From: Bacteroidota bacterium
GTDB taxonomy: Bacteria > Bacteroidota > Rhodothermia > Rhodothermales > Bin80
Direction of reading: 5' to 3'
Length of the DNA: 46,082 bases
NCBI GenBank assembly: GCA_028875125.1
Contig: JAPPGC010000005.1
Location: 1 to 46,082 of the forward strand
The notes under the pieces are model-generated. The model was given only the letters and a program-made list of their open reading frames with translations. It ran no database searches and had not been told where the DNA came from. The stretch's first letter is position 1, and each line of letters opens with the position of its first letter. Position numbers and translations under genes: made by a program. Of this stretch, positions 31,555 through 46,082 are shown one piece after another.

Positions 31555-33015
31555 CTACTTCAACCCCAATTCTACTACAGCGGTTACCTCTACAGGAACG
31601 TCATGAGCCAGCGCATAATTACCCATGACGATTAGTGAGTCGCCCGGCTCAACAATACTCGGCGGATCACCACCAATGATTTCCGTGAAATCGCCGGAGC
31701 GCTCGCCTACGATCACATACATCCAGTAGGATCTACCTCCTACAACTAGGAAAACAACATCTCTGCCCTGCCGAACGACTACAGCGTCAGATGGAACTAC
31801 CATTCGATCCTGTAAACGGTTTTTTTCCAGAGCTATATCCGCATAAAGGCCCGATACGAGCCGCCCACCGGGATTCTGCAATGCTACAGTGACGCGCCCG
31901 ACCCCGGTCCCTGGTTCAATGGAGGGATTGACTGCATGCACGTAGCCCTGGAACGGTTCATCGCTGTAGCTCGGTATACTCACGTTAGCCGATACTCCTC
32001 TAAGAATATGCACCAAGTCACCCTCCAGGACATCCACCTTCACTTTCATTCGATTATCGTCGATCAACGTAAGCAGTGTCGTACCAGCCCCGATGTTCTG
32101 CCCCGCTTCCACCACAAGGTCTGCTATTCGTCCTGTGAATGGGGCCACAACGCGTGTACGCTCCACTTGTAGGCGGGCCCGCTCAACCTGCAGTTCGGTC
32201 TGCGTCAGATTCTTGGTCACTGCTGCAACATCCTCGCGTTGATTACCCACGAGTAGATTCATGGCTTCAAAACGACGGCGAGCATTATCCAGTTCTGTCT
32301 GCAGGAGATTCCCAGCTGCAAATGCTTCCTGTGCGGTCTTCAGCTGGGCTCTGGCTTCTGCTAGTTTAGTGGTGTCGGCTTCGGTCAGTTCCCCGGCATT
32401 GCTGAGTTGTACCGAAAAAACCGACAATGCCTGGAGCCGGGCTGCTTCAGCTTCCCTAAGCCGAATGAGGGGTTCGCGATCATCCAGTCGCAGCAGCACC
32501 TGACCTGCCTGTACACGCTGCCCTTCTTCTACGGGTCGTTCAAGAATGAGGCCACCGATCTCTGCACTTATCTCGGCTTTTCTCCACGGTGCCAAGTGTC
32601 CCGTCGCTTCTGCGCGAAGCGGGAACTCCCCCCGCTCTATTACCATGACTTCAACTGGAGCACGTGCAGCTTCTGGCTCTTCAGTTAGTTGCCGATCGTC
32701 CTCCGAATCCTCCCCGGTTATGTAAGGCCATATTCCGTACAGGATCAACCCTGCCGTAGCCAACGCTAAAATCAAACCGAATACCTGCCAAGGACGAATC
32801 TTTACTGAATGAGCGCGATTTACTGGCCGTAAAATGATTTTTTTTCGGTCTATTCCGAGTCTATAATCCGAATGTCTCTTGCAGCAAGAAGCTTGCCAAA
32901 GTGAACGAACTACACGATAGGCAAGGCAACTTCCCCTCCGGGGCGTTCGCTGAACTATGCTGCCGAAATATAGTTCAGCTTTACCGTGTCGATTGGAATG
33001 TTGTCCGCCAAACAC
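31555..33015 (-). CDS. RND periplasmic adaptor (HlyD/AcrA family)
   Basis: The conserved part has one N-terminal membrane helix (VFGLILALATAGLILYG), a lipoyl half (EEGQRVQAGQVLLRLDD), a coiled-coil hairpin of about 100 residues, the second lipoyl half (VVAPFTGRIADLVVEAGQNI) and a beta-barrel. It joins the inner-membrane permease to an outer-membrane channel. The only ATG in frame (33015) would add 70 residues of unlikely sequence (Arg/Cys-rich) and come within 16 bp of the start of the divergent second permease. TTG at 32775 lies inside the membrane helix; ATT/ATC at 32835/32838 fit best by protein alignment. The real 5' end is thus open, and the stretch 32840-33030 is probably the divergent promoter region. 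Confidence 0.8.
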   Translation of the reverse strand: MFGGQHSNRHGKAELYFGSIVQRTPRRGSCLAYRVVRSLWQASCCKRHSDYRLGIDRKKIILRPVNRAHSVKIRPWQVFGLILALATAGLILYGIWPYITGEDSEDDRQLTEEPEAARAPVEVMVIERGEFPLRAEATGHLAPWRKAEISAEIGGLILERPVEEGQRVQAGQVLLRLDDREPLIRLREAEAARLQALSVFSVQLSNAGELTEADTTKLAEARAQLKTAQEAFAAGNLLQTELDNARRRFEAMNLLVGNQREDVAAVTKNLTQTELQVERARLQVERTRVVAPFTGRIADLVVEAGQNIGAGTTLLTLIDDNRMKVKVDVLEGDLVHILRGVSANVSIPSYSDEPFQGYVHAVNPSIEPGTGVGRVTVALQNPGGRLVSGLYADIALEKNRLQDRMVVPSDAVVVRQGRDVVFLVVGGRSYWMYVIVGERSGDFTEIIGGDPPSIVEPGDSLIVMGNYALAHDVPVEVTAVVELGLK

Positions 33016-33031
33016 TATTCACGCAACTATT

Positions 33032-36000
33032 ATGTTCACTAAAGGAGCCGGGCTCCTGAAAAGGCCCATCTCAGTGATATCCTGGTGTGTTGCGCTAGTT
33101 CTTGCCGGCACCTGGGCTGCAATTGATATTCCAATTGAATACTCACCGAACACCGAGTTGCCCCGCGTGAGAGTTTCGGCAATTTGGCCCGGTGCATCCC
33201 CCCGGCAGGTCGAGCGGTACGTGACCGCCCCGATTGAACGTGAAATCCAGACCGTTCCCGGTATTGCCGAAATCGGTAGCATTTCCTCCGAGGGACGCTC
33301 ACATGTCCAGATCCTGGTGGATGAGGATGTTGACCTGAGCACTTTTGCCACCCAGATTGGTGAGCGTCTAACCCTGCTCAGAGACCAATTGCCTGATGAT
33401 GTATCACCTCGGTTGACTAAGCAGATCCCGGAGGCTTTTCGTGACGTACAGGGCTTCATGACACTAAGGTTAATCGGTCCCTACAACCCGGATGAACTTA
33501 GAAAACTGGCCGATGAACAGCTCAAACCTCAATTCGAAAGTCTGCCCGGTGTTGATCTGGTTGAGGTTACCGGCGGAAGTGAACGGGAGCTCCTGATTAC
33601 CCTGGATCCGGCCCGACTGGATGCCTATGGAATTGATTATTCCGAGGTGAGGGGACAAATAGATTCGGCTTTACGGGATCATGTTTTCGGACGCATGGAT
33701 GCCAAAGGCCGGGGACACCTGATGATTAGCCGCCCTGAACTTGATGTAAGCCTTCTGTCCGCCATCATAGTCAGCCGAAGTAATCCAGAGAAACTCCCGA
33801 TTCGCCTTGATCAAGTTGCTGACTTGAATCTGGGCCCGGCCCCACGCCAGAGTATCCGGCGTATTGACGGGCTTAATGCAGTGGCGTTGGATCTGGAACG
33901 GACCCGGGGTTCGCATATGATCAATGTCGCCAAGACCGTCAATAATCGAATTGAGGATATCCGGGACTCCCTGCCGGAAGGTGCGCGGCTGATGATCGTC
34001 ATGGATCGCACCGAGGACGTCCGCGAACTGCTAGATGATTTAGCACTACGCGGCGGTATCGGTCTAATCCTGGTCACATTCGTGCTGCTCTTTATGCTAA
34101 AGAGCGTAAGAGCTACTGCTATTGTGTTATTCAGTGTCGCTCTGGCACTGACACCTGCGCTGGCCCTGTTCAGGTTTTTCGACCTTTCCCTGAACGTAAT
34201 TACGCTGGCCGGCCTAGTGCTTGTCTTCGGCCTATTGGTGGACAACAGTGTTGTCATTGTTGAACAACTGCTCCTGCAGCAGCAAAAGTTAATGGCACGC
34301 GGAATTCAGGGGCTTGAGTTGCAAATAGTTCGCACACAAGCCGCCCTGAAGGCAGTATGGCTGCCGCTAATGGGAGGCACTTTAAGTACCATGGCCGTCA
34401 TGCTTCCCCTAGTTTACCTGAGCGGGGATTTGCGTGACTTGTTTCTGCCCTTTGGAGTTCTGGTAAGCCTTACCCTTCTTATCTCGTTGGCAAGCGCAGT
34501 CATCTTCGTGCCGGTAGTTGTGCGCTTTCTGCCTCCCAAAAGTGAAAAGCCGGAACACCGCTGGCTTAGACGAGCAGTTGCCTCACCTTACCGCCTGGTT
34601 GCCAGATTTCCGAAATCCACTCTGATCACACTGTTTCTTGTGCTCGGCGTCCCCATATGGACACTGCCCATGCAAATCAACGAGCCCCGGCGAGGATGGT
34701 CAAGTGAGGTTAAGGGACGTTTCGCCAACGTGTATAACGCTACCTTGGGAGCCCAAACAATCCAGAGAGCACGCGAATGGCTAGATCCACTCACAGGAGG
34801 AGTCCTGCGACCTTTTTTCAGGAACACATCATTCTACAAACCCTGGCGTTACCGTGAACGAGAATCCATCCGTGTTACCCTGACATTTCCAAAGGGAAAC
34901 ACGATTGAGCGGAGCGACTCGCTGATTGTGGATTTTGAGCAGATGGCCCTTGCGGAGGCGAGCGTTTATCGAACCGATGTACGGATCAGCGAGGACTATG
35001 CGCGATTGGAAATCGAATTCAAGAAAGGTGCACTCCTGGAACCTGGCCCCTATATCCTGCAAAGACGTCTCGTAGGCCGGGCCATCCTCCTCGGCGGATT
35101 ATCAGTGTACGTGTCAGGGATAATCCCGCAGACTAGTTATTCCAGTGGGGGTGGCGGTGGATCCGGTGGCGCACGGGTTAGCATGTATGGTCCAAACTAC
35201 GAGGACCTTGATGCCCTGGCAAATCAGTTTGCAGCCTTTGTTAAGCGAAGAAGTCGCCGTGTCCAAACCGTAGACTTGAATGGCACCCGAAATTCATGGG
35301 TTGCGACCCAGGCTCGCCATGTCCTTCAGCTTGAATGGTCCGGTGATGCTACTGCAAGAACCGGTACAGATGCCAGGTGGATTTATTATCGATTGAGACC
35401 CTACTTCGAGACCAACCGCGCATCCTGGAGGGCCGATATAGCTGGTGATACTCGAGTACCTATCCGGATTATTCTTGAGAAAGCTCCCGAGATGGACATT
35501 GACCGCATCATTCAGCGTCCACTCTTGGTCGCTGACAGCTCGGCCCTGAGGTTAGCAGGTGTGGCAAACTACAATATCACTCAAAGGCCTGCGGAGATTG
35601 AGCGTGAGGACCAGCAGTATGTACGTCATGTGTCCGTTGATTTTCGGGGCCCGTTTGACATGAGACGGAAGTTTATGGAGGATGCAGTCGCGGCTTTCTC
35701 TGTACCGCCTGGATATCGACTTGACTACGGGAATAATTTCTTCTTCACTGATGAAACCAAGCGTGCTTTCAGTTGGGTTTTTGTTGCAACCATTATCCTT
35801 GTATTCCTAGTTACGGCATCAGTGTTTGAGTCATGGCGTCTGCCCCTGGTGGTCATGCTCAGTGTTCCGCTAGCCGCAGTAGGCGTTTGTATGGGCTTCA
35901 TCTTCACTGGAACCAGCTTTGTTGAGGGGGCTTTTATCGGGATCGCTCTCCTGATTGGCATCGCTGTTAACGACAGTATTCTATTGACAGATCGTTTTCG

Positions 36001-36295
36001 GCAATTGCGAGTGGACCGTCCATACGGGAATCCTTCCATACTGGCGCGTCTGGCCGTTCGCGAACGATTACGTCCAATGTGGACCACAACATTGACTAGC
36101 TGTGCCGCCATGCTGCCACTACTGGTCTTCCCCGATAATGACGATTTTTGGACCGGTTTGGCAGTCACGGTCACAGGTGGTCTTTTCGCATCCACACTGC
36201 TTGCCCCGTTTGCCTCAGTGGCTATGCTGTCGCTCTTCAGGCGTAAGCCGCTGTCAGAGAAGCTGAACCCGTCTACCATTGAAACCCTGGCCTGA
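33032..36295 (+). CDS. RND efflux permease, second of two
   Basis: A 1087-residue RND transporter. Start at ATG 33032 gives the usual MFTKGAGLLKRPISVISW N-terminus; an ATG at 32957 would add 25 non-typical residues. TM4 reads LVFGLLVDNSVVIVEQ and the second-half counterpart IGIALLIGIAVNDSILLTDR. The periplasmic loop has a Gly-rich insert SSGGGGGSGG at about residue 705. It is transcribed away from the adaptor and first permease. It is a different subfamily from the 28460-31522 permease (low similarity outside motifs), so the pair may form a heteromeric pump like MdtBC or two pumps sharing one adaptor. Confidence 0.9.
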   Translation: MFTKGAGLLKRPISVISWCVALVLAGTWAAIDIPIEYSPNTELPRVRVSAIWPGASPRQVERYVTAPIEREIQTVPGIAEIGSISSEGRSHVQILVDEDVDLSTFATQIGERLTLLRDQLPDDVSPRLTKQIPEAFRDVQGFMTLRLIGPYNPDELRKLADEQLKPQFESLPGVDLVEVTGGSERELLITLDPARLDAYGIDYSEVRGQIDSALRDHVFGRMDAKGRGHLMISRPELDVSLLSAIIVSRSNPEKLPIRLDQVADLNLGPAPRQSIRRIDGLNAVALDLERTRGSHMINVAKTVNNRIEDIRDSLPEGARLMIVMDRTEDVRELLDDLALRGGIGLILVTFVLLFMLKSVRATAIVLFSVALALTPALALFRFFDLSLNVITLAGLVLVFGLLVDNSVVIVEQLLLQQQKLMARGIQGLELQIVRTQAALKAVWLPLMGGTLSTMAVMLPLVYLSGDLRDLFLPFGVLVSLTLLISLASAVIFVPVVVRFLPPKSEKPEHRWLRRAVASPYRLVARFPKSTLITLFLVLGVPIWTLPMQINEPRRGWSSEVKGRFANVYNATLGAQTIQRAREWLDPLTGGVLRPFFRNTSFYKPWRYRERESIRVTLTFPKGNTIERSDSLIVDFEQMALAEASVYRTDVRISEDYARLEIEFKKGALLEPGPYILQRRLVGRAILLGGLSVYVSGIIPQTSYSSGGGGGSGGARVSMYGPNYEDLDALANQFAAFVKRRSRRVQTVDLNGTRNSWVATQARHVLQLEWSGDATARTGTDARWIYYRLRPYFETNRASWRADIAGDTRVPIRIILEKAPEMDIDRIIQRPLLVADSSALRLAGVANYNITQRPAEIEREDQQYVRHVSVDFRGPFDMRRKFMEDAVAAFSVPPGYRLDYGNNFFFTDETKRAFSWVFVATIILVFLVTASVFESWRLPLVVMLSVPLAAVGVCMGFIFTGTSFVEGAFIGIALLIGIAVNDSILLTDRFRQLRVDRPYGNPSILARLAVRERLRPMWTTTLTSCAAMLPLLVFPDNDDFWTGLAVTVTGGLFASTLLAPFASVAMLSLFRRKPLSEKLNPSTIETLA

Positions 36296-36495
36296 GCGTC
36301 ATTCTGGGGGCATTGCAAATGGCTTGTCTGATGTCGTAAAGGATTTCACAGCATAAGCGGGCGAGGTGTCACACCGATATTTCTGAAAGATTTAGGCATC
36401 AGGTCGTATTTCGGGAATCAATATACCTGTACATCCCATCACACCAAACACCCGACCCGGAGACGGGTTCGCGGAACTGCCATCGCTACTCAGTT

Positions 36496-36648
36496 TCAGC
36501 CCGTGAGTGACACTGTAGGCTCCTTGCGCTGGATCTGTTGTATTTCCCGTAGACGTACCGTCACTAATCCTCCAATCGCAGGACCAAGATTATCCGTTGA
36601 TTGATCTACGTCATCTACTACTCCGTAATCTGCGTCGGCGACGCACAT
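36496..36648 (-). CDS. Possible 50-residue ORF coupled to the end of iolC
   Basis: The ATG at 36648 overlaps the iolC stop as TAATG, and the frame runs 50 codons to TGA (36496-36498). The peptide starts MCVADADYGVVDDVDQSTDN and is acidic then basic. I recognise no family. The other minus frame here (about 36393-36595) also reads like protein without a start (GAYSVTHGLKLSSDG). The gap 36299-36647 may therefore hold the remains of another gene rather than this small one. Confidence 0.2.
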   Translation of the reverse strand: MCVADADYGVVDDVDQSTDNLGPAIGGLVTVRLREIQQIQRKEPTVSLTG

Positions 36649-37640
36649 TACACATTCATCATCGCAGTTGCTTCTTCAAACGTAGGCATGAAGTTGGCAC
36701 ATCCATGCCGGGTAACCACAATCGCGCCACAAGCATTGCCAAGTCGAGCCGCGTCGTAGTATGTCCAACCAGCAACAACGCCATAAATGAATCCCGCGGC
36801 AAAAGCGTCTCCGGCCCCAAGAATATTGTGTACTTCAACTGGGAACCCAGGAACACTAACTGGGGATTTCCCCCGCTCATGAATACGTACACCTTCGGCC
36901 CCACATTTCTCCACGATAAGCTCAACGCCCCAATTAAACAGTGTCTGGACGGCCGAATCCACATCCCCGCTCACATGCGCGTCTGATACCTGTTGATGTG
37001 TTAATTCTATCTGGTCGGGGTCCTCGAGGACTGCGGCGTTAATCTCGTCCTGGGTGCCAAGCAAAATATCAACGTTGGCAAGAACATTCCTTACAGTAAC
37101 CCCGAATGCACGGGGATCATGCCACTGATCCGGACGAAAATCAAGATCAAAAACTACAGGTACATCGTAACGGGCAGCACGCTCTACTGCAAATAGCGTC
37201 GCACTTCGACTGGATTCCCGGGCAAGATTAGTACCTGCAAATTCAAAGATTTTCGCCCGATCTATCGGAGTGGCCAATACATCTTCTATACTCAGCGCAT
37301 TGTCGGCGCAGTTGTCTCTGTAGTATACCAGAGGGAAACGATCGGGAGGTTCGATACCCAAGATGACTGCACTTGTCCGCCGGTCAGGCTTGCGCGAGAT
37401 GTACTTCGTCTCCACGCTCTCATTCTGGAGAAAGTTCAATACAAAATCTCCAACTGGATCCTGTCCAACCGCGGTGAGCAGCGCGGTTCGCATTCCGAGT
37501 CGACTCGCACCTACACATACATTGGTGGGAGATCCTCCCACATAAGCAGAAAAACTGGTGATCTGCGGGAATGGCGCCCCGATATCGTCCGAATACAGAT
37601 CAATGGACGAACGACCCATCGCAATCAAATCATAGTGCAT
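36648..37640 (-). CDS. iolC: 5-dehydro-2-deoxygluconokinase
   Basis: A 330-residue PfkB-family sugar kinase. The start MHYDLIAMGRSSIDLYSDDI and the block FSAYVGGSPTNVCVGASRLG fit IolC; the PfkB signature GAGDAFAAGF has the catalytic base Asp278. It phosphorylates 2-deoxy-5-keto-gluconate with ATP, the step before the aldolase. It stands apart from the rest of the inositol genes by about 11 kb and is on the same strand. Fructokinase or KDG kinase are alternatives, but the N-terminal block favours IolC. Confidence 0.8.
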   Translation of the reverse strand: MHYDLIAMGRSSIDLYSDDIGAPFPQITSFSAYVGGSPTNVCVGASRLGMRTALLTAVGQDPVGDFVLNFLQNESVETKYISRKPDRRTSAVILGIEPPDRFPLVYYRDNCADNALSIEDVLATPIDRAKIFEFAGTNLARESSRSATLFAVERAARYDVPVVFDLDFRPDQWHDPRAFGVTVRNVLANVDILLGTQDEINAAVLEDPDQIELTHQQVSDAHVSGDVDSAVQTLFNWGVELIVEKCGAEGVRIHERGKSPVSVPGFPVEVHNILGAGDAFAAGFIYGVVAGWTYYDAARLGNACGAIVVTRHGCANFMPTFEEATAMMNV

Positions 37641-37673
37641 GAGGAAGGTTCGAACTGGAGAAAAATCGGGGGA

Positions 37674-37820
37674 TTATAGCCAGTACAAGAATACAACAGA
37701 AATTCTCAGCAAGGTTGCCATCGCTACATGACCATCAATAGGATACCTGTGCAGCATATTAAACATGTTGACAGCGCCATCCGCGAGCGCCATCATCCCA
37801 ACGCAGAAGAAAGTCACCGG
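37674..37820 (-). pseudogene. Fragment of a membrane protein upstream of iolC
   Basis: From ATG 37796 the minus frame reads MMALADGAVNMFNMLHRYPI, then DGHVAMATLLRISVVFLYWL and TAA at 37674. In the next frame just upstream (about 37820-37900) lies another hydrophobic stretch, GIDLASMLIIAAILSGSG, as if one frameshift splits a membrane protein. No family recognised. The whole stretch 37641-37950 is otherwise empty and must hold the iolC promoter. Confidence 0.3.
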
Positions 37821-37950
37821 ATCCAGACAGAATAGCTGCAATGATCAGCATGCTTGCTAAGTCGATGCCCCGATGAAACTGACTTCCCCCTTTTGTGAAA
37901 TTTCTAAGCACTACGTGTAAAAATGTAGTTGTCGCTAAACAAATGGGCTG

Positions 37951-38952
37951 CTAGCCAGCCGCGTTCATATCAACCATGGCTTTAATACAACCTTGGGCAC
38001 CGTCAAGTGATTTAATTCGATCTGGAACTTCGGTGAATGGAATCCGATCAGTGATGAACCAACTTGGATCTATAGTGCCGTCTTCCAACATTGACATAAC
38101 CGCACAAAAATCATGGTGCGTGCCATTGCGACTGGCTCGCAAAGTTAATTCTCTTCGATGAAAATCTGGATCATCAAACTCGAAGTTTCCGACATACAAC
38201 CCTACAAATACCAGCGTCCCGCCAGGGGCAACCAACTGGTAACTTTGATGCACAGCTGCGCGGTTGCCAGTCGCTTCAATCACAGTGACCGGTAAATCTC
38301 CATCGAAAGCCTCCCTGACCACAATCTCAGGATTTTCACCAGGAGCCAGTGCACGCTCAGTCAGTCGAAGCCCCGACTGCCTGCGACCTTCCCGAATATC
38401 CATAACTGCAAGATCTGCCCCCAGAGCATTCGCAATTAATGCGCAGGCAAGTCCAATCGGCCCCTGCCCCACAACCAGAACCTGATCCCGTTCACTGATA
38501 CGTGCGCGTTTTACTGCATGATAGCCCACCACAAGAGGTTCAACCAGTGCAAGGATAGCAGGTGGAAGTGACGTACTGGGATGGAGGCTGAAGGCCGGCA
38601 ACCTCAAAAGCCTAGTGAACGCACCATCCTGATGAATCCCGAGCACACTAAGCTCATAGCAGCAATTTGTATCCCCACGTTTACAGGCCTGGCAGTCTGC
38701 ACAAAACATGTACGGATTCACCGCACAATACGTGCCTTGAGCGAGGTCGCCAGCGGACTCGACTATCTGAACGGATATTTCATGGCCAAGCCTTCTCGGA
38801 TACGTGAAGAACGGCTGACATCCCCTGATCGCCTGATAGTCTGTACCACAGATCCCCACCTGCTGCACACGAACCAGGACGCCCTCACCGTCCGGCTCCT
38901 TTATGTCCTCCCAGGCCCATTTCCCTGGTGCGTGCAATACAAGCGCCCGCAT
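37951..38952 (-). CDS. Zinc-dependent medium-chain alcohol/polyol dehydrogenase
   Basis: A 333-residue MDR enzyme. Catalytic zinc ligands Cys35 (GICGTD), His57-Glu58 (GHEIS) and Glu138; structural zinc cysteines 84, 87, 90 and 97-98 (FCADCQACKRGDTNCC); Rossmann motif VVGQGPIGLACALIANALGA. It resembles L-galactonate/L-gulonate 5-dehydrogenase and other polyol dehydrogenases (RspB-type) that oxidise a secondary hydroxyl with NAD+. It starts 5 nt after the DAHP synthase stop, so the two are co-transcribed. A role in polyol or cyclitol metabolism fits the nearby inositol genes, but substrate is unknown. Confidence 0.8.
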   Translation of the reverse strand: MRALVLHAPGKWAWEDIKEPDGEGVLVRVQQVGICGTDYQAIRGCQPFFTYPRRLGHEISVQIVESAGDLAQGTYCAVNPYMFCADCQACKRGDTNCCYELSVLGIHQDGAFTRLLRLPAFSLHPSTSLPPAILALVEPLVVGYHAVKRARISERDQVLVVGQGPIGLACALIANALGADLAVMDIREGRRQSGLRLTERALAPGENPEIVVREAFDGDLPVTVIEATGNRAAVHQSYQLVAPGGTLVFVGLYVGNFEFDDPDFHRRELTLRASRNGTHHDFCAVMSMLEDGTIDPSWFITDRIPFTEVPDRIKSLDGAQGCIKAMVDMNAAG

Positions 38953-38957
38953 ACCTG

Positions 38958-40316
38958 CTAGAGTTGCTCCAATGTTTGGTACTTCTGGGCAATACGAAGT
39001 GCCATTTCAAGGGATTGGTGCGCATTCAGCCGGGGATCTACCGTCGAACGATACCGTAGGTTAAGGTCTGCCTCGCCAACATCGCTAGCGCCTCCAACAC
39101 ATTCGGTGACATCTTCCCCAGTGAGCTCAAAATGCACGCCTCCCAGAACGGATTGCATGCCCGCATGGATTTCAAACGCGGCTTCCAGTTCCACCAGGAT
39201 ATTATCAAAGCGCCGCGTTTTCATACCACCGGAGGCCGTCTCGGTATTCCCATGCATTGGATCGCAACACCACAGAGCATTCAGTCCTGCACGCTGTGTA
39301 GCATCAATAAGTCCTGGCAATGTACTTTCTATTTTGGCAACCCCCATCCGTGTGATGATGACTATGCGGCCACGATCATTAAGGGGATTCAGGTTGCGAA
39401 GAAGTGACAACAGATCGCTAGGCGCCATGTCGGCGCCGATTTTAATACCGACTGGATTGCGTATCCCGCGCATATACTCAATGTGTGCGCTTCCTTTGAA
39501 TAATGTTCGCTTACCAATCCACGGCAAATGCGTGGACAGATTATAAATGTTATCGGAACGGGGGACTTCGCGCGTGAACACTTCCTCGTATGGCAAATGA
39601 AGTGCCTCGTGGCTGGTATAAAAGTCCACCCGGTTCAACCCACCGATAGGATAATCCGCGACTGTTTCTGCAAAGCGCAGCGCCTCACGAATCTTACTGA
39701 TGATGGCTTGGTAACTCTTGATGTGCGGCGATTGTTGAGCAAAACCAAGATCCCAGTGGTCCGCGTTATGTATATCTGCAAAGTTACCATCGGCTAGCGA
39801 CCGCACAAAATTCAGTTGGATGGCCGAGTGATGGTAGGCCTTCATCAGACGCTCAGGATCTGGAATTCTTGCCTCTGGAGTGAATTCTCGAGCATTGATA
39901 TTATCGCCTCTGTACGACGGAAGCGACACGTCATTGCGCGTCTCAAACAATTTACTCCGGGGTTTAGCATACTGCCCAGCAAAACGCCCAACCCTTACAA
40001 CCGGCATCTTTAGGCCATAAATAAGCACTACGCTCATCTGGAGCAGGATCTTGAGGCGGTTCTTAATAATCTCCTCCTCGCAATCCTCAAAGCTCTCCGC
40101 GCAGTCTCCACCCTGAAGCAAAAAACGCTGACCTGCGGCAGCTTCACTCAACTGATCGCGTAATGCCTCAATCTCCCAAGACGTAACCAGTGGTGGCTGC
40201 TGCCTAATCGCATTAAGGACTGTTTGGAGATGCTCCTCATCCGTATAGTCCACCTGTTGAGCGATTTCTTTTGTACGCCAAGAGATCGGACTCCAGTCTG
40301 GTCGTGTGTTCTCCAT
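38958..40316 (-). CDS. Class II 3-deoxy-7-phosphoheptulonate (DAHP) synthase
   Basis: A 452-residue class II (plant/Mycobacterium-type) enzyme. Metal and PEP site motifs: FLLQGGDCAESF (Cys72), RVGRFAGQYAKPRS, CCDPMHGNT, and GGVHFELTGEDVTECVGG near the C-terminus. It condenses PEP with erythrose 4-phosphate, the first step of the shikimate pathway. Length fits the family. Class II enzymes can be housekeeping or belong to secondary-metabolite loci. Here it is coupled to an alcohol dehydrogenase rather than other shikimate genes. The divergent lipoprotein gene starts 104 bp away. Confidence 0.9.
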   Translation of the reverse strand: MENTRPDWSPISWRTKEIAQQVDYTDEEHLQTVLNAIRQQPPLVTSWEIEALRDQLSEAAAGQRFLLQGGDCAESFEDCEEEIIKNRLKILLQMSVVLIYGLKMPVVRVGRFAGQYAKPRSKLFETRNDVSLPSYRGDNINAREFTPEARIPDPERLMKAYHHSAIQLNFVRSLADGNFADIHNADHWDLGFAQQSPHIKSYQAIISKIREALRFAETVADYPIGGLNRVDFYTSHEALHLPYEEVFTREVPRSDNIYNLSTHLPWIGKRTLFKGSAHIEYMRGIRNPVGIKIGADMAPSDLLSLLRNLNPLNDRGRIVIITRMGVAKIESTLPGLIDATQRAGLNALWCCDPMHGNTETASGGMKTRRFDNILVELEAAFEIHAGMQSVLGGVHFELTGEDVTECVGGASDVGEADLNLRYRSTVDPRLNAHQSLEMALRIAQKYQTLEQL

Positions 40317-40420
40317 AATTGGTTAAACCTGAAAACGCGGTACTACGAAACACGCCCTGCATCGTTTCTATGGCAACGATATTGTAAGAATTACGTAGAC
40401 AGTAAAAAAGGGTTAGTTCA

Positions 40421-41347
40421 ATGAGACAATATAGGCTGCTGATCTTTGGTTTCGTTCTCGTCTTCATCATCTCCGCTTGTGACTCTGGAGGTTCCGACAA
40501 CACTTCTCCAGAAACAGGTGCAGTCATTCTGACACTCAATAGTTTAAGTCCGCTCCCGGGGGATTACCACCTGGAGGGCTGGGTTGTAACCTCGGATCTG
40601 GCCACGCTTTCACTTGGAAAATTTACTATAGGTTCGGGTGGTAAACTTTTTAACCTGGCTGGTGAAGAGTTAGCCACTCGCAGACTTGACACCCAATTTC
40701 CGCTTGACAGTGCCCGCATTGCCTACATCACGATTGAGCCACCTGGCGATGTTGACGATTCTCCCTCTATGACTCGACTGATGGGGGGCCTGTTCATTGA
40801 AGGGAGTGCAGAACTGCGCACAACCGATGTAGAAGGCATTGAGGATGCCTTGGTTCTGGCACGCGGAAACTACATCATAGAAACACCAACCAATGGGCCT
40901 AATTCGTCTGAACATAGCGGCATATGGTTTGTGAATCTAACCGGTGGCCCTCCCGCACGTGGGCTGCGTATAACAACCCCCATTCCCGGCTGGAAGCACC
41001 AGGGGTGGGTGGACATAGATGGGATTCCACTCAATATGGGAGTGATCTCACACCACAGCCAGCCCGACGATTCGAATATCTACAGTGGTTCCCAACCTGG
41101 GTATAATTACCCTGGCGAAGACTTTCTAGTAAATGCCCCTCCCTCCCTCACATTCCCTCTCAGCCTTGCAGGTACGCGGGTAACCGTCTCACTTGAGCCT
41201 GACCCCGACCCCGATCCAGAGCGATCACAATTGATCCTGTTCGAAGCGACTGTCCCTGAAACGCCTGAGTCAATTGGTACGACCTACGACATGACCAATC
41301 TGGTTGATACATGGCCTACTGGGAGGATGGTCATAGTCCAGCAGTGA
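40421..41347 (+). CDS. Lipoprotein of unknown function
   Basis: A 308-residue protein with a lipoprotein signal peptide ending in lipobox IISAC (Cys20), followed by an acidic Ser/Gly linker (DSGGSDNTSPE). The body has paired repeats beginning LPGDYHLEGWVVTSDLA and IPGWKHQGWVDIDGIPLNMG, which look like two copies of a small beta-domain (anti-sigma/CHRD-like guess not supported). A Pro-Asp tract (DPDPDPE) lies near residue 264. No family recognised and no partner gene. It diverges from the DAHP synthase gene. Confidence 0.65.
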   Translation: MRQYRLLIFGFVLVFIISACDSGGSDNTSPETGAVILTLNSLSPLPGDYHLEGWVVTSDLATLSLGKFTIGSGGKLFNLAGEELATRRLDTQFPLDSARIAYITIEPPGDVDDSPSMTRLMGGLFIEGSAELRTTDVEGIEDALVLARGNYIIETPTNGPNSSEHSGIWFVNLTGGPPARGLRITTPIPGWKHQGWVDIDGIPLNMGVISHHSQPDDSNIYSGSQPGYNYPGEDFLVNAPPSLTFPLSLAGTRVTVSLEPDPDPDPERSQLILFEATVPETPESIGTTYDMTNLVDTWPTGRMVIVQQ

Positions 41348-41378
41348 TTTTCTGTCTTCAGGCAATACTTGACGCATT

Positions 41379-41396
41379 GCCCCTCAGGAAAGGGGC
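41379..41396 (+). terminator. Hairpin downstream of the unknown lipoprotein gene
   Basis: GCCCCT (41379-41384), loop CAGGAA, AGGGGC (41391-41396), a GC-rich 6-bp stem 32 bp after the stop codon. A five-T run follows about 9 nt later (41405-41409). It is a plausible but imperfect terminator. Confidence 0.4.
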
Positions 41397-41607
41397 CTTG
41401 GAAGTTTTTGGGTAAGGTTTTTCTGCAGCGGTACTGCCCCACTGATCATGATTATATTCTGGGGGCGGTCTTGACTTGTATTGATAGTAAAACTTCGGTT
41501 GAACGGGTCCCATGTAGAGCCACTAAACTCATTGATTTTCTGAATTTCACGGATCTTTGCTTTCTAGAGCTTCATTGAAATTTCTCTGCGCTTACCTGTT
41601 TATCCCG

Positions 41608-41878
41608 CTAATTTGACGGCGTAGAAAGGTCCACTTTAGTCGGATTATGCGAATCATCGGCATGGGTTAACCGTTTTTGAGTCGACAGGTACTTTGCCTT
41701 CAGGGAGGTCACTGTTTGGTAAATTTCGTTCACGATCCGCGTAGAGTTAGCACCCCAATCCCACGGCTTCTGTGTTTCAGAAAATCCAATTCGGTACGCT
41801 AGTGCTGGATGGTCCTTCACACACCCCTTCAAACACCAACAACAACTTCGTGAACCCTTTGGGTAAAACTCTATAGTT
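41608..41878 (-). other. Protein-like open frame in the gap before the protease; rest of gap empty
   Basis: The minus frame ending at TAG 41608 reads HPALAYRIGFSETQKPWDWG, then ANSTRIVNEIYQTVTSLKAK and a charged tail. Its only ATG is inside the protease gene (42249), so it has no sensible start here. It may be a remnant of a gene. The remaining gap 41397-41607 and 41879-42016 shows nothing else; the protease promoter should lie within it. Confidence 0.2.
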
Positions 41879-42016
41879 GTGCTCCACACAGGGAAACAAT
41901 TCGTGTTAGCAGGAGAATACAAAACTGCATATCTTCCCAACAATACAAAATCTCGGGGCCCCTGTCCCATTGATTGTGGCCTGAAGAAACGATGCCGCGC
42001 AGGGCAGATTAGCCCG

Positions 42017-45000
42017 ATGAATATACTACCTCTCCCATGGAGCCCGCAGGCCCGCCTGTTTTCCTGTTTTTTACTCTGGGTTCTTATTGGTCTTTGGACT
42101 GTGCCATTTGGCCGGGCCCAAGAGACGCCCGTATACGAGTCGCACGTCGTGGTCGTGCAGGTTGAGCCGGGTGTAGCCATCTTCGACGGAGCCGCCATGA
42201 CGGGGCTCGAGGTCTTTGACCGTACAGCCGACAGGTATGGCGTACACACGATAGAGCGCGTGTATCCATTTCTGGATCACGTGCAGCCCACCCCCAAGAC
42301 CCGGCAGAATCTCGTGGCCCTTCGTCATACCTACTACGTCCGGTACAGCGCGGGCGATGATCCCGAGCGGGTGGCGAAGGCGCTGGCCTCGGCACCTGGC
42401 GTGATCTATGCCGAGCCCGTGATCATTAATCGCCTTTTGGAATCGGAGGTTAGGGCAGAGCCCAATGATTCATTGTTCAACAATCAGACTTACCTGCGTC
42501 AATTGCGTCTCCCGGAAGCCTGGGACATCGTCAAGGGAGAAGACATGAGCCCGCCGGTTGTAATCGCAATTGTGGATAACGGCACCGATTGGCGGCACGA
42601 AGACCTTCTGGCCAACGTATGGACCAATGCAGATGAGATTCCAGACAACGGAATAGATGACGATAACAACGGCTTAATTGATGATGTGCACGGGGCGAAC
42701 TTCTGCAACAATGATGACACCAATAACGATCCATTCGATCCAGAGAGGAGTTGGCACGGCACTCGCGTAGCCGGTACAGCCGGTGGCGTAACCGATAATG
42801 GCATTGGGATGGCCGGTGCGGCCTGGAATGCCCAGCTCATGCATATCTGCGGCCGTTACGAGGGCATTGTCTATGCAGCCGCCAACGGTGCCGACATCAT
42901 AAATGTAAGCTGGGGCGGGAGATCCGTCGAACCGTGGGCTTTCGTTACTCGATCCCTAGATCTCGCCACTGATATGGGTGCGCTGGTGGTAGCAGCAACA
43001 GATAATGCCAATCGCAACAGTGATCTGTACCGATTTTACCCAGGTAGCTACCCTCGCGTACTGTCCGTTGGTGCGACGGCCAAGGACTCGCGGATACGGG
43101 CGAATTTTTCGAACTATGGCAAGATGGTGAACGTCTTTGCCCCTGGCGTAGGCATCATTACTACCGAGGTCAACAATGGATACACGCTTTCAAGAAGCGG
43201 AACATCATTTTCGACTCCTCTGGTCAGTGGTGTGGCGGCCTTGGTAAAGACCCGGTATCCTGACATTTCACCAGACGCATTGCGGGAACAAATCCGACTT
43301 GCGAGCAAGTTCAGAGACGCAAAGGATCCGGGTCAAGCAGGACAACTAGGGAATGCGTACGTAGATGCCGAGGCGTCCTTGAAAATGCCCGTTTTTCCGG
43401 CTGTACGCCTGACGCAGTGGACATGGGGCGACACGGATGGCGACGGCATGATCATGTCGGGGGAAGAGGTAACGATCAAGGCTGTGTTCGTCAACCACCT
43501 GGCGGATGCACAAGAACTGAGCATAGGACTGAGGGGGGCTGAATCATATCCGTACATTGATCTATCGAATGCGGAGCAAATGGTAGGCCGTCTGGCTAGT
43601 GGCAACTCCACAGAGGTGACATTGCGGTTCGTGGTTGCCAACGATGCGCCCTCCTCCCGCGTGATACGACTCTATACACGAATTCGCGACGGTACGTTCA
43701 TCGATGAGCCGGACCAGTTATCTTTTGGAATCAACGCTAGGATCGAGTTATATCACGCCGCACTCAGTGCGTTCTACACTTCCACTGGCGGCCCCAGTTG
43801 GCGCAATAGTTACAACTGGGATTTCACTACAGTTCCCAATCCGTGGCAGTTGAATCGGTGGTATGGCGTCCAGGTCAGGCACGGTATTCTGAGTGGACTC
43901 TTTTTTTGTAGAAACAATTTGACGGGAACGCTGCCAGGTGAATTGGGCAACTTGCACGGGTTAATGGATCTGCTGCTATGCAACGACTCACTTACCGGGG
44001 AGATCCCCCCTGAACTGGGCAACCTGACGCAGTTGCATTCGCTTGACCTGTACCGCAATTCGCTTACCGGGGAAATCCCCCATGAATTAGGTTACCTGTC
44101 GCAATTGCAATCCTTGAACCTGGAAAGCAACTCGCTCACTGGGGAAATCCCCGGCGAGTTGGGTAATCTCAAGCGATTGCGAAGGCTAGACCTGAGCGCC
44201 AATTCACTGTCCGGGGAAATCTCCCGGGAATTGGGTAATCTCTCGCAGTTGCAACACATGTCGCTCTGGGGCAATGCCCTCTCCGGGGAGATCCCCCATG
44301 AACTGGGCAACCTGACGCAATTGCAATGGCTTGAGCTGAGTAACAATTCACTCACTGGGGTAATTCCCAGCGAGTTGAGTAGTCTCATGCAACTGCGAAC
44401 GCTGGGGCTGGGTGGCAATTCACTCTCCGGGGAGATCCCCAGTGAATTGGGCAACATGATGCAGTTGGGTTGGCTGAATCTGGGCGTCAATTCACTATCC
44501 GGGGAAATCCCCCATGAACTAGGTAACCTCACGCAGTTGCACTACCTGCTTCTAAACAACAATTCGTTCACCGGGGAAATTCCCTATGAATTGACAAACC
44601 TGACGCAATTGCTAAGGCTGGACCTGGATGGCAATTCACTCACTGGGGAAATTTCCGATGAATTAGATAACCTCTCGAAGTTGGAAAGGTTGGAGCTGAG
44701 CAACAATTCGCTAACGGGGAAAATTCCCCACGAATTGGGCAACCTGACGCGATTGGAGTGGCTGGCCCTGTATTCCAATTCGCTTACTGGGGAACTTCCT
44801 AGCGAGTTGGGTAACCTGACACAGTTGAGAGGGCCGGTTCTGAACGACAATTCGCTAACGGGGGAAATTCCCCATGAACTGGGAAACCTCTCGCAATTGC
44901 AATGGCTTTATCTGAGCGACAATTTGCTCACCGGTGAAATTCCCAGCGAACTGGGTAGACTCTCGCAATTGACACGGCTGTACCTTAACGATAACGCCTT

Positions 45001-45721
45001 TACGGGCAGGCTACCGAGGAGTCTCATGCAACTGACGAATCTGGAGTCTCTGTCCTTTAGTGGCCAGGACCTTTGCGCACCGGGAGATGATGCGTTTCAG
45101 ATGTGGCTCGGTAGTATCCGGAATAAAAGCGGTCCAACCTGCCCTGGAGTCCATTTTACAGATAGCGTGGCGGATCAATCATTTCCGCGTGCGCAGCCCA
45201 TTGTTCCTGTTGTCTTGCCCGAAGCTGCAGGGGCGTCACCGATTAACTATGCGCTGACACCCACATTGCCGACCGGGTTAGCCTTTGACCAAGGCAACCG
45301 CACCCTTAGTGGATCGCCGACGGAGGTCACGCCGGCCACGCCCTATACGTACAAGGCCACCGATACGAACGGATCCACAGACAGTTTGTCCTTTAGCATA
45401 GAGGTGTATTCTCCGGTCAGTGCCGAGCACGAATCATTGCCGGAAGAATTCGCCCTGCACGGCAACTTTCCTAATCCCTTTCAGCATACCACGCAGCTGC
45501 TGATGGATCTTCCGTGGCCCACCCGTGTGACGGTTGAGGTGATAGATGTGATAGGGCGCCGCGTACTGACGACGCCTTCGACTGATTTGACAGCCGGATG
45601 GCAACGCAGCGTAAACCTGAGCATGGCTGCGCTGCCCTCGGGGCTGTATCTGTACAGGGTGCATGTGTCAATACCGGGTGGCCGCGTTGTACACGCGGGA
45701 CGCTTCGTGCATGTCCAGTAA
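42017..45721 (+). CDS. Secreted subtilisin-like (S8) protease with leucine-rich repeats and a T9SS sorting tail
   Basis: A 1234-residue multidomain protein. Start at ATG 42017 gives a Sec signal peptide (MNILPLPWSPQARLFSCFLL..., cut near ...GRAQ); an ATG at 41879 would add 46 residues before it. Domains: propeptide with inhibitor-like fold (about 30-140); S8 catalytic domain with Asp187 (IVDNGTDW), His247 (WHGTRVAG) and Ser397 (SGTSFSTP), the normal subtilase spacing; a beta-domain (about 455-570); a linker NSYNWDFTTVPNPWQLNRWY resembling the LRR N-cap; 16 plant-type LRRs of 24 residues (636-1019); an Ig-like He_PIG domain (about 1075-1130); and a T9SS type A C-terminal domain starting FALHGNFPNPF (about 1139-1234). 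It is probably exported to the cell surface by T9SS. The LRR array would bind a protein or glycan partner and target proteolysis. It appears complete. Confidence 0.9.
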   Translation: MNILPLPWSPQARLFSCFLLWVLIGLWTVPFGRAQETPVYESHVVVVQVEPGVAIFDGAAMTGLEVFDRTADRYGVHTIERVYPFLDHVQPTPKTRQNLVALRHTYYVRYSAGDDPERVAKALASAPGVIYAEPVIINRLLESEVRAEPNDSLFNNQTYLRQLRLPEAWDIVKGEDMSPPVVIAIVDNGTDWRHEDLLANVWTNADEIPDNGIDDDNNGLIDDVHGANFCNNDDTNNDPFDPERSWHGTRVAGTAGGVTDNGIGMAGAAWNAQLMHICGRYEGIVYAAANGADIINVSWGGRSVEPWAFVTRSLDLATDMGALVVAATDNANRNSDLYRFYPGSYPRVLSVGATAKDSRIRANFSNYGKMVNVFAPGVGIITTEVNNGYTLSRSGTSFSTPLVSGVAALVKTRYPDISPDALREQIRLASKFRDAKDPGQAGQLGNAYVDAEASLKMPVFPAVRLTQWTWGDTDGDGMIMSGEEVTIKAVFVNHLADAQELSIGLRGAESYPYIDLSNAEQMVGRLASGNSTEVTLRFVVANDAPSSRVIRLYTRIRDGTFIDEPDQLSFGINARIELYHAALSAFYTSTGGPSWRNSYNWDFTTVPNPWQLNRWYGVQVRHGILSGLFFCRNNLTGTLPGELGNLHGLMDLLLCNDSLTGEIPPELGNLTQLHSLDLYRNSLTGEIPHELGYLSQLQSLNLESNSLTGEIPGELGNLKRLRRLDLSANSLSGEISRELGNLSQLQHMSLWGNALSGEIPHELGNLTQLQWLELSNNSLTGVIPSELSSLMQLRTLGLGGNSLSGEIPSELGNMMQLGWLNLGVNSLSGEIPHELGNLTQLHYLLLNNNSFTGEIPYELTNLTQLLRLDLDGNSLTGEISDELDNLSKLERLELSNNSLTGKIPHELGNLTRLEWLALYSNSLTGELPSELGNLTQLRGPVLNDNSLTGEIPHELGNLSQLQWLYLSDNLLTGEIPSELGRLSQLTRLYLNDNAFTGRLPRSLMQLTNLESLSFSGQDLCAPGDDAFQMWLGSIRNKSGPTCPGVHFTDSVADQSFPRAQPIVPVVLPEAAGASPINYALTPTLPTGLAFDQGNRTLSGSPTEVTPATPYTYKATDTNGSTDSLSFSIEVYSPVSAEHESLPEEFALHGNFPNPFQHTTQLLMDLPWPTRVTVEVIDVIGRRVLTTPSTDLTAGWQRSVNLSMAALPSGLYLYRVHVSIPGGRVVHAGRFVHVQ
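43922..45073 (+). repeat. 72-bp tandem repeat array (16 units) encoding plant-type LRRs
   Basis: Sixteen in-frame units of exactly 72 bp encode TGEIPxELGNLTQLxxLxLx-NSL-type repeats. DNA identity between units is high around the GGGGAAATCCCC-like GEIP codons, so the array can grow or shrink by recombination. Units at both ends (GTLPGELGNL and TGRLPRSLMQL) are more divergent, as capping repeats usually are. Confidence 0.9.
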
Positions 45722-46036
45722 AGGATCCGAGTCGGGACTACTTGAAACGGATTTCTGGGCTTGCCGCAGTTGAATTATGTGGTTGCGCCTGTTAGGAAGG
45801 TGTGTAAGAGGCGTTCGACCCGTCGCTCCGGTCTGTATTCCGGCTCGTAAATTTTCCGATGACGGCAACTCAGACTCGCCAGTACCACCAAACCCAAGAT
45901 TGGTAACCAAAATCATTCGGGAAACCACTTGACTCCAATTATTAAAAATGGTTTTGCAAAAAGCCCAAACCTCCAGAGTATTGCTTTGTAGTTTTATGTG
46001 CATACGCTCAGGAAGCTACACCGCTGCATTATCTAG
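45722..46036. other. Gap after the protease; no gene seen
   Basis: A minus-strand frame (45668-46003) is open but overlaps the protease end and does not read like protein. No tRNA or clear hairpin terminator is seen after the protease stop. Confidence 0.3.
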
Positions 46037-46082
46037 CGACAGTTAAAATTACGGTATGACGACAATTAAAATTAGGGTATGG
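46037..46082. repeat. Tandem 23-bp repeat at the window edge, resembling an IS21-family terminus
   Basis: CGACAGTTAAAATTACGGTA (46037 onward) and CGACAATTAAAATTAGGGTA (46060 onward) are two units with a 23-bp period, identical at 20 of 23 positions. Stacked repeats of this length with a GACA-TTAAAATTA core are typical of IS21-family ends. The window stops here, so the element body, if any, lies beyond 46082. Confidence 0.45.

What the first reader, a model, noticed from the sequence alone, without database searches (positions are those of the whole stretch)
42017..45721. T9SS-exported subtilase fused to 16 plant-type LRRs
Seen: intact catalytic triad, sixteen 24-residue LRRs encoded by 72-bp near-identical units, Ig-like domain and T9SS tail in one protein. 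Known: LRRs bind partners; subtilases cleave proteins. Inference: the LRR array could steer the protease to a host, prey or algal surface, and repeat number may vary between strains.
Basis: partly seen in the sequence, partly recalled or inferred. Interest (0 to 1): 0.55.

Follow-up and report, generated by a model that had tools for sequence, protein, structure and literature searches.

The report
Secreted protease family with hypervariable LRRs
A poorly known bacterial lineage carries a small, shuffling family of protein-cutting enzymes, probably secreted, whose recognition part is a row of leucine-rich repeats that changes length in whole units and varies mainly at the positions that would touch a partner, which looks like a bacterial recognition repertoire for an unknown target.

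Summary
The protein is real: signal peptide, S8 subtilase with intact triad, plant-type LRR array (16 units counting caps), He_PIG Ig domain, type A T9SS tail. The repeats are not 'near-identical' (mean 68% DNA identity). New: it belongs to a multi-copy family, 5 intact copies and 1 broken in its genome, with the protease-LRR joint in 13 of 16 genomes of its family. LRR number changes in whole 24-residue steps (43 of 45 measurable genes, 4-25). Variation peaks at the x positions of the LxxLxLxxN strand. In a single-contig genome four copies have near-identical proteases (silent divergence 0.03-0.04) but unlike arrays, and closest units differ at those positions mainly by amino-acid changes (84 vs 9 silent; elsewhere 79 vs 89; p=4e-13). 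Against a close relative, two syntenic genes break sharply (16 vs 13, 13 vs 20 units), one does not (13 vs 13), and three sites differ by presence. Best reading: a protease whose LRR array is a diversifying recognition module, working like, but not belonging to, fungal NLR repeats. pN/pS exceeds 1 significantly only in the young arrays (1 of 7 sets), and arrays without protease look similar, so the signature is the array's. Target, host and secretion are untested.

The parts
42017..45721 (+). whole gene: S8 protease with LRR array, Ig domain and T9SS tail (1234 aa)
42017..42121 (+). signal peptide (hydrophobic run; cleavage probably after GRAQ, residue 35)
   Evidence: read by eye from the translation; no signal-peptide program was available
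42188..42442 (+). N-terminal propeptide-like region
   Evidence: weak Peptidase_S8_N match, 26.2 bits, below its cut-off of 30.5
42557..43336 (+). subtilase (S8) catalytic domain with Asp, His, Ser and oxyanion Asn
43712..43924 (+). N-terminal LRR cap
   Evidence: matches between family members; helix and strand pattern of the model
43925..45076 (+). 16 LRR units of 24 residues (72 bp), cap units included; most variable at unit positions 6, 8, 10, 11 in the phase LxxLxxLxLxxN
45164..45406 (+). Ig-like domain (He_PIG)
45467..45664 (+). T9SS type A C-terminal sorting domain
   Evidence: TIGR04183 over cut-off; PF18962 below cut-off
41937..46026 (.). segment about 82% identical to the syntenic segment of the close relative G004 (71% in the array), against 96.4% for 35169-41936
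46037..46082 (.). two copies of a 23-bp motif at the contig end, the end of a high-copy repeat, probably an insertion sequence

Best explanation
This gene is one copy of a multi-copy family of proteases, predicted to be exported by the T9SS, in which a conserved catalytic domain and sorting tail carry a diversifying LRR recognition array. The proposed process has three parts. (1) The gene spreads and is lost as a unit; copies differ between species in place and number. (2) Inside the array, 24-residue units are gained and lost whole while the outermost units tend to stay anchored; recombination between copies probably helps. (3) Selection favours amino-acid changes at the exposed positions of the inner beta-strand that would contact a ligand. 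The likely function is to bind a protein or glycoprotein on another cell or in a host matrix and bring the protease to it, with diversity tracking a changing or varied target. Shown: architecture, copy number, whole-unit length changes, position of variation, excess of amino-acid-changing over silent differences in the young arrays of one genome, synteny breaks, presence/absence sites. Inferred: secretion, proteolytic activity, binding, target, recombination mechanism.
For: Family: own-genome search, 39-genome search, S8 tree of 52 rows. Whole-unit changes: 43 of 45 measurable genes give integer counts, 4-25; two give 3.2 and 9.2; 5 of 50 rows not measurable. Position of variation: 3.05-3.69 bits at positions 6, 8, 10, 11 over 54 own units and 2.39-2.94 bits over 65 units of G011, nearly unchanged with phase-based units. 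The repeating strand of the model covers unit positions 6-8; concave LxxLxLxxN x residues as the usual binding face: PMC3138743, passages. Selection: 32 disjoint closest unit pairs of G011, hypervariable codons 83.8 amino-acid-changing vs 9.2 silent differences, pN/pS 2.37 (Fisher p=0.003); other codons 78.8 vs 89.2; contrast p=4e-13. Bootstrap over all G011 unit pairs: pN/pS 3.0, 95% 2.1-4.8. The contrast between hypervariable and other codons holds in 7 of 7 sets tested, p 0.008 or less, the window alone at 2e-4 (sets overlap). Four G011 copies: silent divergence before the array 0.029-0.043, aligned hypervariable residues 10-33% identical, pN/pS there 2.0-4.9 in 6 of 6 pairs. Synteny breaks at C20/G004 C44 and C110/G004 C97. 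Presence/absence at three sites. Export machinery: SprA 1688 bits, PorV 302 bits, both over cut-off, 0 of 14 control genomes.
Against: One of three syntenic pairs with both genes complete (C100/G004 C45) keeps 13 units one-to-one, 86% identical even at hypervariable positions. pN above pS is significant in only 1 of 7 closest-pair sets (G011); the others give 1.39 (own, p=0.10), 1.28 (window, p=0.56), 1.79 (p=0.22), 13 vs 0 changes (p=0.10), 1.39 (p=0.17) and 1.06 (p=1.0). Over all pairs the own-genome ratio is 1.01 (0.88-1.20) and the window's 1.25 (1.00-1.63). Between aligned arrays outside G011 the ratio exceeds 1 in 7 of 17 pairs and is 0.70 for the window against its syntenic partner; alignment of non-matching units and near-saturated silent sites weaken these tests. 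21 arrays not classed as S8-LRR give a median ratio of 0.96 against 1.04 in 31 that are (above 1 in 6 of 21 and 17 of 31), so the pattern is not tied to the protease. Unit-to-unit variation at contact positions is expected in any LRR protein. In two LRR-bearing rows (own C110 and G008 C69) the oxyanion Asn column holds Asp. No binding, protease, secretion or strain-level data.
Confidence: 0.58

Rival explanations
1. Nutritional protease: the LRR array is a substrate-docking module for abundant extracellular proteins, and copies differ because they dock different substrates (ordinary functional divergence, no arms race).
For: Asp, His and Ser are kept in all LRR-bearing rows examined; several copies per genome; one pair of arrays conserved between species; pN/pS near 1 in the older arrays.
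Against: Four copies in G011 have nearly identical proteases but arrays whose closest units differ mainly by amino-acid changes at contact positions; sharp breaks at two syntenic genes.
Confidence: 0.2
2. Adhesin or surface display: the LRR-Ig-tail part is the business end (host or neighbour adhesion) and the protease is a secondary or processing part.
For: G011 has two adjacent proteins with the same LRR type, Ig and tail but another N-terminus and no S8 domain; the own genome has further LRR proteins without S8.
Against: The catalytic triad is kept in all LRR-bearing rows, and amino-acid differences in the part before the array are restrained (pN/pS 0.24-0.60 over 23 pairs).
Confidence: 0.2
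3. Antigenic variation or escape: the array itself is bound by a phage, predator or host receptor and varies to avoid it.
For: Copy turnover and whole-unit length changes would fit a surface antigen; some positions off the strand also vary (positions 2 and 17 at 2.5 and 2.3 bits in the own units).
Against: Variation is highest at strand positions 6, 8, 10, 11, which LRR proteins use to bind.
Confidence: 0.1
4. Targeted mutagenesis by a diversity-generating retroelement produces the pattern.
For: In G011 the third base of hypervariable codons is mostly fixed (G in 60 of 65 at position 6, C in 63 of 65 at position 10) while the first two bases vary.
Against: No reverse-transcriptase match (RVT_1) in G000 or G004; one in G011, some 400 kb from the nearest of the four copies. 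The adjacent AAT codon of Asn12 is constant in 64 of 65 units, whereas adenine-directed mutation (mechanism recalled) should hit it.
Confidence: 0.03
5. Assembly artefact: short-read assembly joined the wrong copies or miscounted repeats.
For: The own genome is in 129 contigs and several copies lie near contig ends.
Against: Longest exact repeat in the window gene 21 bp; longest match to the other own copies 44 bp. The DNA just upstream of the break matches none of the other own S8-LRR loci. The G011 copies lie in a one-contig genome.
Confidence: 0.05

Closest known systems
Fungal NLR receptors with repeat-number polymorphism and positively selected repeat positions (Podospora WD, ANK, TPR repeats; PMC4986451, passages seen)
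   Same: An effector part plus a repeat array that varies in unit number and has positively selected positions mostly on the concave, binding face.
   Different: Here the repeats are LRRs and the effector is a bacterial protease predicted to be secreted; internal identity (59-73% amino acid in 15 arrays) is below the 85% used there for high internal conservation. That paper found no LRR motifs in fungal NLRs.
Parachlamydiaceae NEX/PEX families (F-box, RING/U-box or BTB plus LRR; PMC4209131, passages seen)
   Same: Bacterial multigene families with a conserved N-terminal domain and LRR or TPR units that vary between 1 and 39.
   Different: There purifying selection dominated and recombination was not convincing; the partner domains are ubiquitin-related. 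Here the partner is an S8 protease with a T9SS tail, and contact positions show excess amino-acid change in the young arrays.
Lamprey/hagfish variable lymphocyte receptors (recalled; one mention seen in PMC3138743)
   Same: LRR array varying at the strand x positions and in unit number.
   Different: VLRs are assembled somatically from gene cassettes (recalled); nothing here shows somatic or programmed assembly.
Plant LRR receptor kinase ectodomains (FLS2, ERL1, MIK2, GSO1)
   Same: Same 24-residue LxGxIP repeat class and solenoid fold.
   Different: No kinase or transmembrane part; coupled to a protease and a bacterial export tail.
Eukaryote-like repeat proteins of sponge symbionts (PMC8163846, passages seen)
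   Same: LRR-containing proteins thought to act in host association.
   Different: The passages seen treat them as classes and do not describe this architecture. A sponge origin of this genome is not shown by any search.

Membership tests
S8 subtilase | Peptidase_S8 domain over cut-off | tested here: met
   146.8 bits, cut-off 21.8
S8 subtilase | Asp, His, Ser triad | tested here: met
   window has all three; of 52 aligned rows Asp in 50 (the other two are S8 rows without LRR), His in 52, Ser in 52
S8 subtilase | proteolytic activity | not testable with these tools
   needs expression
T9SS type A cargo | C-terminal sorting domain | tested here: met
   TIGR04183 24.3 bits, cut-off 23; PF18962 19.6 bits is under its cut-off of 27
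T9SS type A cargo | genome encodes the translocon | tested here: met
   SprA and PorV over cut-off; other components not searched
T9SS type A cargo | export depends on T9SS | not testable with these tools
   needs a mutant
Plant-type LRR solenoid | 24-residue LxGxIP units folding as a beta-solenoid | tested here: met
   (array pLDDT mostly 93-98)
Xanthomonas LRR type III effectors (XopAE, XopAC) | NCBIfam score over cut-off | tested here: not met
   160 bits against 600 and 133 against 450; the best stretches lie in the LRR part
Diversity-generating retroelement target | reverse transcriptase in the genome | tested here: not met
   RVT_1: none in G000
High-internal-conservation repeats (as in fungal NLRs) | repeat identity over 85% | tested here: not met
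   mean amino-acid identity 0.61 in the window array, 0.59-0.73 in 15 arrays
High-internal-conservation repeats (as in fungal NLRs) | repeat-number polymorphism within a species | not tested
   one genome per species was available; between species numbers differ
Sponge-symbiont eukaryote-like protein | host association | tested here: inconclusive
   relatives are MAGs named Rhodothermaceae/Rhodothermales; no call gave a habitat; paper searches did not find the isolates

The most novel reading that the evidence does not exclude
The family is a bacterial, secreted, catalytically armed recognition repertoire: arrays are rebuilt by recombination among copies fast enough to differ between strains or even within a population, and the diversity decides which partner cells are bound and cut, for example in host acceptance or kin discrimination.
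Probability: 0.2. Interest if true: 0.85.

Novelty: new variant of a known kind. Interest (0 to 1): 0.6.

Why it matters
Diversifying repeat arrays tied to an effector are known as recognition systems in fungi, plants and jawless vertebrates. A bacterial protease family with the same marks would give a test of how symbionts or neighbours recognise each other. The close pair of species here already marks two loci where arrays turned over and one where they did not, and the single-contig genome with four sister copies is ready for binding comparisons.

Tried and rejected
Diversity-generating retroelement: considered because third codon bases at hypervariable positions are mostly fixed in G011; set aside for lack of a reverse transcriptase in the own genome and a constant neighbouring AAT codon. 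Three of the five ORFs listed at the G011 reverse-transcriptase locus gave no Pfam match at 0.001; not followed.

A signature specific to the protease fusion: tested against 21 arrays not classed as S8-LRR and not found. Those 21 include some cut or broken S8-LRR genes that my motif test did not class as S8 (L104, L127, L083 115-2421, the L062 fragment).

First estimate of array length from the tail (4-31 units) was inflated by duplicated Ig domains in some copies; replaced by the cap-to-cap count. Dropped before that count: five loci that duplicate other rows (L050, L051, L054, L055, L056) and ORFs whose S8 match covered under 380 residues or that lacked the LRR cap.

Recombination between copies in G011: informative sites before the array support conflicting groupings, in line with recombination but not formally tested; the long one-sided run after the array is probably a misaligned duplicated Ig domain and was not used.

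Target-site duplications at empty sites: none seen, junctions too diverged.

Paper searches for hypervariable or recombining bacterial LRR families and S8-LRR fusions, sponge/Rhodothermales LRR proteins and high-internal-conservation repeats: no listing showed this family. I saw listings and the starts of abstracts only, except passages of four papers. Searches looked for the isolates and did not find them. Rfam: no family at gathering score in 40000-46082.
Full report
WHAT IS THERE. The gene runs from 42017 to 45721 on the + strand. Pfam finds an S8 subtilase domain (146.8 bits), plant-type LRRs and a He_PIG Ig domain. NCBIfam finds the T9SS type A sorting domain just over its cut-off (24.3 against 23), while Pfam's version is under its own (19.6 against 27). 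A signal peptide is visible in the translation. In the 24-residue register the array has 16 units counting the cap units, 13 of which match a strict pattern.

FOLD. An AlphaFold2 model of residues 566-1234, from 8 aligned sequences, has mean pLDDT 83.7, mostly 93-98 in the array but low around the Ig domain and tail. By my register count its repeating strand falls on unit positions 6-8. Nearest solved structures by sequence and fold are plant LRR receptor ectodomains (GSO1, FLS2, ERL1, MIK2). In LRR proteins the x residues of LxxLxLxxN lie on the concave, usually ligand-binding face (PMC3138743, passages).

A FAMILY, NOT A SINGLE GENE. In the own genome the protein matches four further S8-LRR genes with open frames (C13, one at C78, C100, C110) and a broken one beside the C78 gene, plus an S8 gene without LRR (C90) and LRR proteins without S8. 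All 39 genomes match some part of the protein. The joint between the region before the array and the LRR cap is found in 13 of the 16 genomes of family f1 (not in G005, G013, G014) and in two of family f15 (G112, G113); none of the other genomes among the 114 searched shows it in the matches listed, and weaker matches were not listed. Ten S8 relatives held as loci, nine from other families and one from G013, show no LRR unit in the same frame. In the S8 tree (52 rows) two named Rhodothermales records (OX638293, OX638295), probably the same genomes as G112 and G113, fall beside the window's clade inside f1 (7 rows, 97/93), which suggests transfer between families.

LENGTH CHANGES IN WHOLE UNITS. 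Measured cap to cap, 45 of 50 gene rows could be counted; 43 are integers in 24-residue units, from 4 to 25, and two give 3.2 and 9.2. The five uncounted rows are cut or broken or lack the cap motif.

WHERE UNITS VARY. Over 54 own units (strict pattern) entropy is 3.69, 3.65, 3.42 and 3.05 bits at positions 6, 8, 10 and 11, at most 0.5 at the structural leucines and zero at Asn12; over 65 G011 units it is 2.94, 2.81, 2.69 and 2.39. The fifth x position of the strand, 5, is lower (2.29 and 1.60), and in the own units positions 2 and 17 reach 2.52 and 2.25. The strict pattern constrains the leucine positions but not the four; units taken by phase alone give nearly the same picture.

SELECTION. 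Pairing each unit with its closest relative, each used once, the four G011 genes give 32 pairs: at the four positions 83.8 amino-acid-changing against 9.2 silent differences (pN/pS 2.37, p=0.003), elsewhere 78.8 against 89.2 (contrast p=4e-13). Over all pairs the G011 ratio is 3.0, bootstrap 2.1-4.8. Six further sets were run: the contrast with other positions is clear in all (p 0.008 or less), but pN above pS is not significant in any: own genes together 1.39 (p=0.10), window alone 1.28 (p=0.56), G010 C62 1.79 (p=0.22), G009 C41 13 changes against none silent (p=0.10), G015 C192 1.39 (p=0.17), G008 C22 1.06 (p=1.0). Over all pairs the own-genome ratio is 1.01 (0.88-1.20) and the window's 1.25 (1.00-1.63; pN at or below pS in 26 of 1000 bootstraps). 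Silent sites are much more diverged there, so those tests are weak. Pairs were chosen by similarity and counts rounded, so the p-values are rough. Control: 21 arrays not classed as S8-LRR (some of them cut or broken S8-LRR genes) give a median ratio of 0.96 against 1.04 for 31 S8-LRR arrays; above 1 in 6 of 21 and 17 of 31. The mark belongs to LRR arrays of these genomes in general and is strong only where arrays are young; one protease-less G011 array has a ratio of 3.96.

ONE GENOME, FOUR COPIES. G011 is a single contig. Its four S8-LRR genes lie at about 155, 320, 397 and 2367 kb. Before the array they differ at 3-4% of silent sites, but aligned hypervariable residues are only 10-33% identical, with pN/pS 2.0-4.9 there, and unit numbers are 16, 15, 22 and 20 for L090-L093. 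Even closest units of different copies differ at 12-15% of silent sites outside the four positions, so the arrays are more diverged than the protease beside them. The first unit stays linked to its side (L090 with L093, L091 with L092), while inner units find no collinear partner. Two further G011 proteins carry the same LRR type, Ig and tail without the protease.

LOCUS BY LOCUS AGAINST A CLOSE RELATIVE. DNA beside the window gene is 96.4% identical to G004 up to 41936, and the DAHP synthase next door is 99% identical in protein. From 41937 through the gene identity is about 82%, dropping to 71% in part of the array; the part before the array is 80% identical in protein, aligned hypervariable residues 31%, and the unit number is 16 against 13. 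At C110/G004 C97 flanks are 94.4% and the gene 79-84%, with 13 against 20 units and only the last units matching in order. At C100/G004 C45 there is no break over 18.5 kb and all 10 compared units pair one-to-one. C13 is syntenic with G004 C4, but the G004 contig edge cuts that gene. The C78 pair has no counterpart at that place in G004 or G008; the G004 C20 gene is missing from the own C36, where the flanks meet; the window gene is missing from its place in G008. Assembly error is unlikely at the window's break: the longest exact repeat inside the gene is 21 bp and the longest match to the other own copies 44 bp, and the DNA upstream of the break matches none of those copies.

EXPORT. SprA (1688 bits) and PorV (302 bits) are present over cut-off and ring in 0 of 14 control genomes. 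Other T9SS parts were not searched and export was not tested.

INTERPRETATION. The economical reading is a protease with a recognition array under diversification. It works like the repeat arrays of fungal NLRs, where unit number varies and positively selected positions lie mostly on the concave face (PMC4986451, passages), but it is not a member of that group: different repeat, different effector, lower internal identity. The nearest bacterial precedent found is the Parachlamydiaceae NEX/PEX families with 1-39 repeat units, where purifying selection dominated (PMC4209131, passages). Sponge symbionts are enriched in such repeat proteins (PMC8163846, passages), and related MAGs have names that I recall from sponge projects, but no call gives the habitat.

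VERDICT. A sound observation with one wrong detail. The fused architecture alone would be a modest curiosity; the diversifying multi-copy family is of real interest. Its function remains inference.

Noticed in passing
window 46037-46082: A 23-bp motif in two copies ends the contig; of 21 exact copies of its core in the own genome 10 lie within 3 bases of a contig start, and those on C20 and C121 at contig ends. Probably the end of a high-copy insertion sequence that breaks the assembly.
   Followed up: partly
L090 12000-13001 and L091 (reverse complement) 6123-7124: In G011 two S8-LRR loci about 240 kb apart share a 1-kb stretch, 99.4% identical and inverted, that encodes a DnaJ-like protein.
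   Followed up: partly
L062 361-3824 (G000 C78): A broken S8-LRR copy (one stop, two ORFs) lies directly upstream of an intact one.
   Followed up: no
window 40421-41347: A 308-aa protein with a signal-like N-terminus (weak RskA_C match below cut-off) lies next to the DAHP synthase also in G004, G008 and G009, but was not found in the fetched neighbourhoods of six other genomes of the genus.
   Followed up: partly
G112 and G113 (family f15): Open frames of 2000-3000 aa with several LRR-cap-like matches each, possibly very large LRR proteins.
   Followed up: no
window 31555-33015: The RND adaptor gene of the window is matched in G004 and G008 by stretches that hold 1 and 3 stop codons.
   Followed up: no
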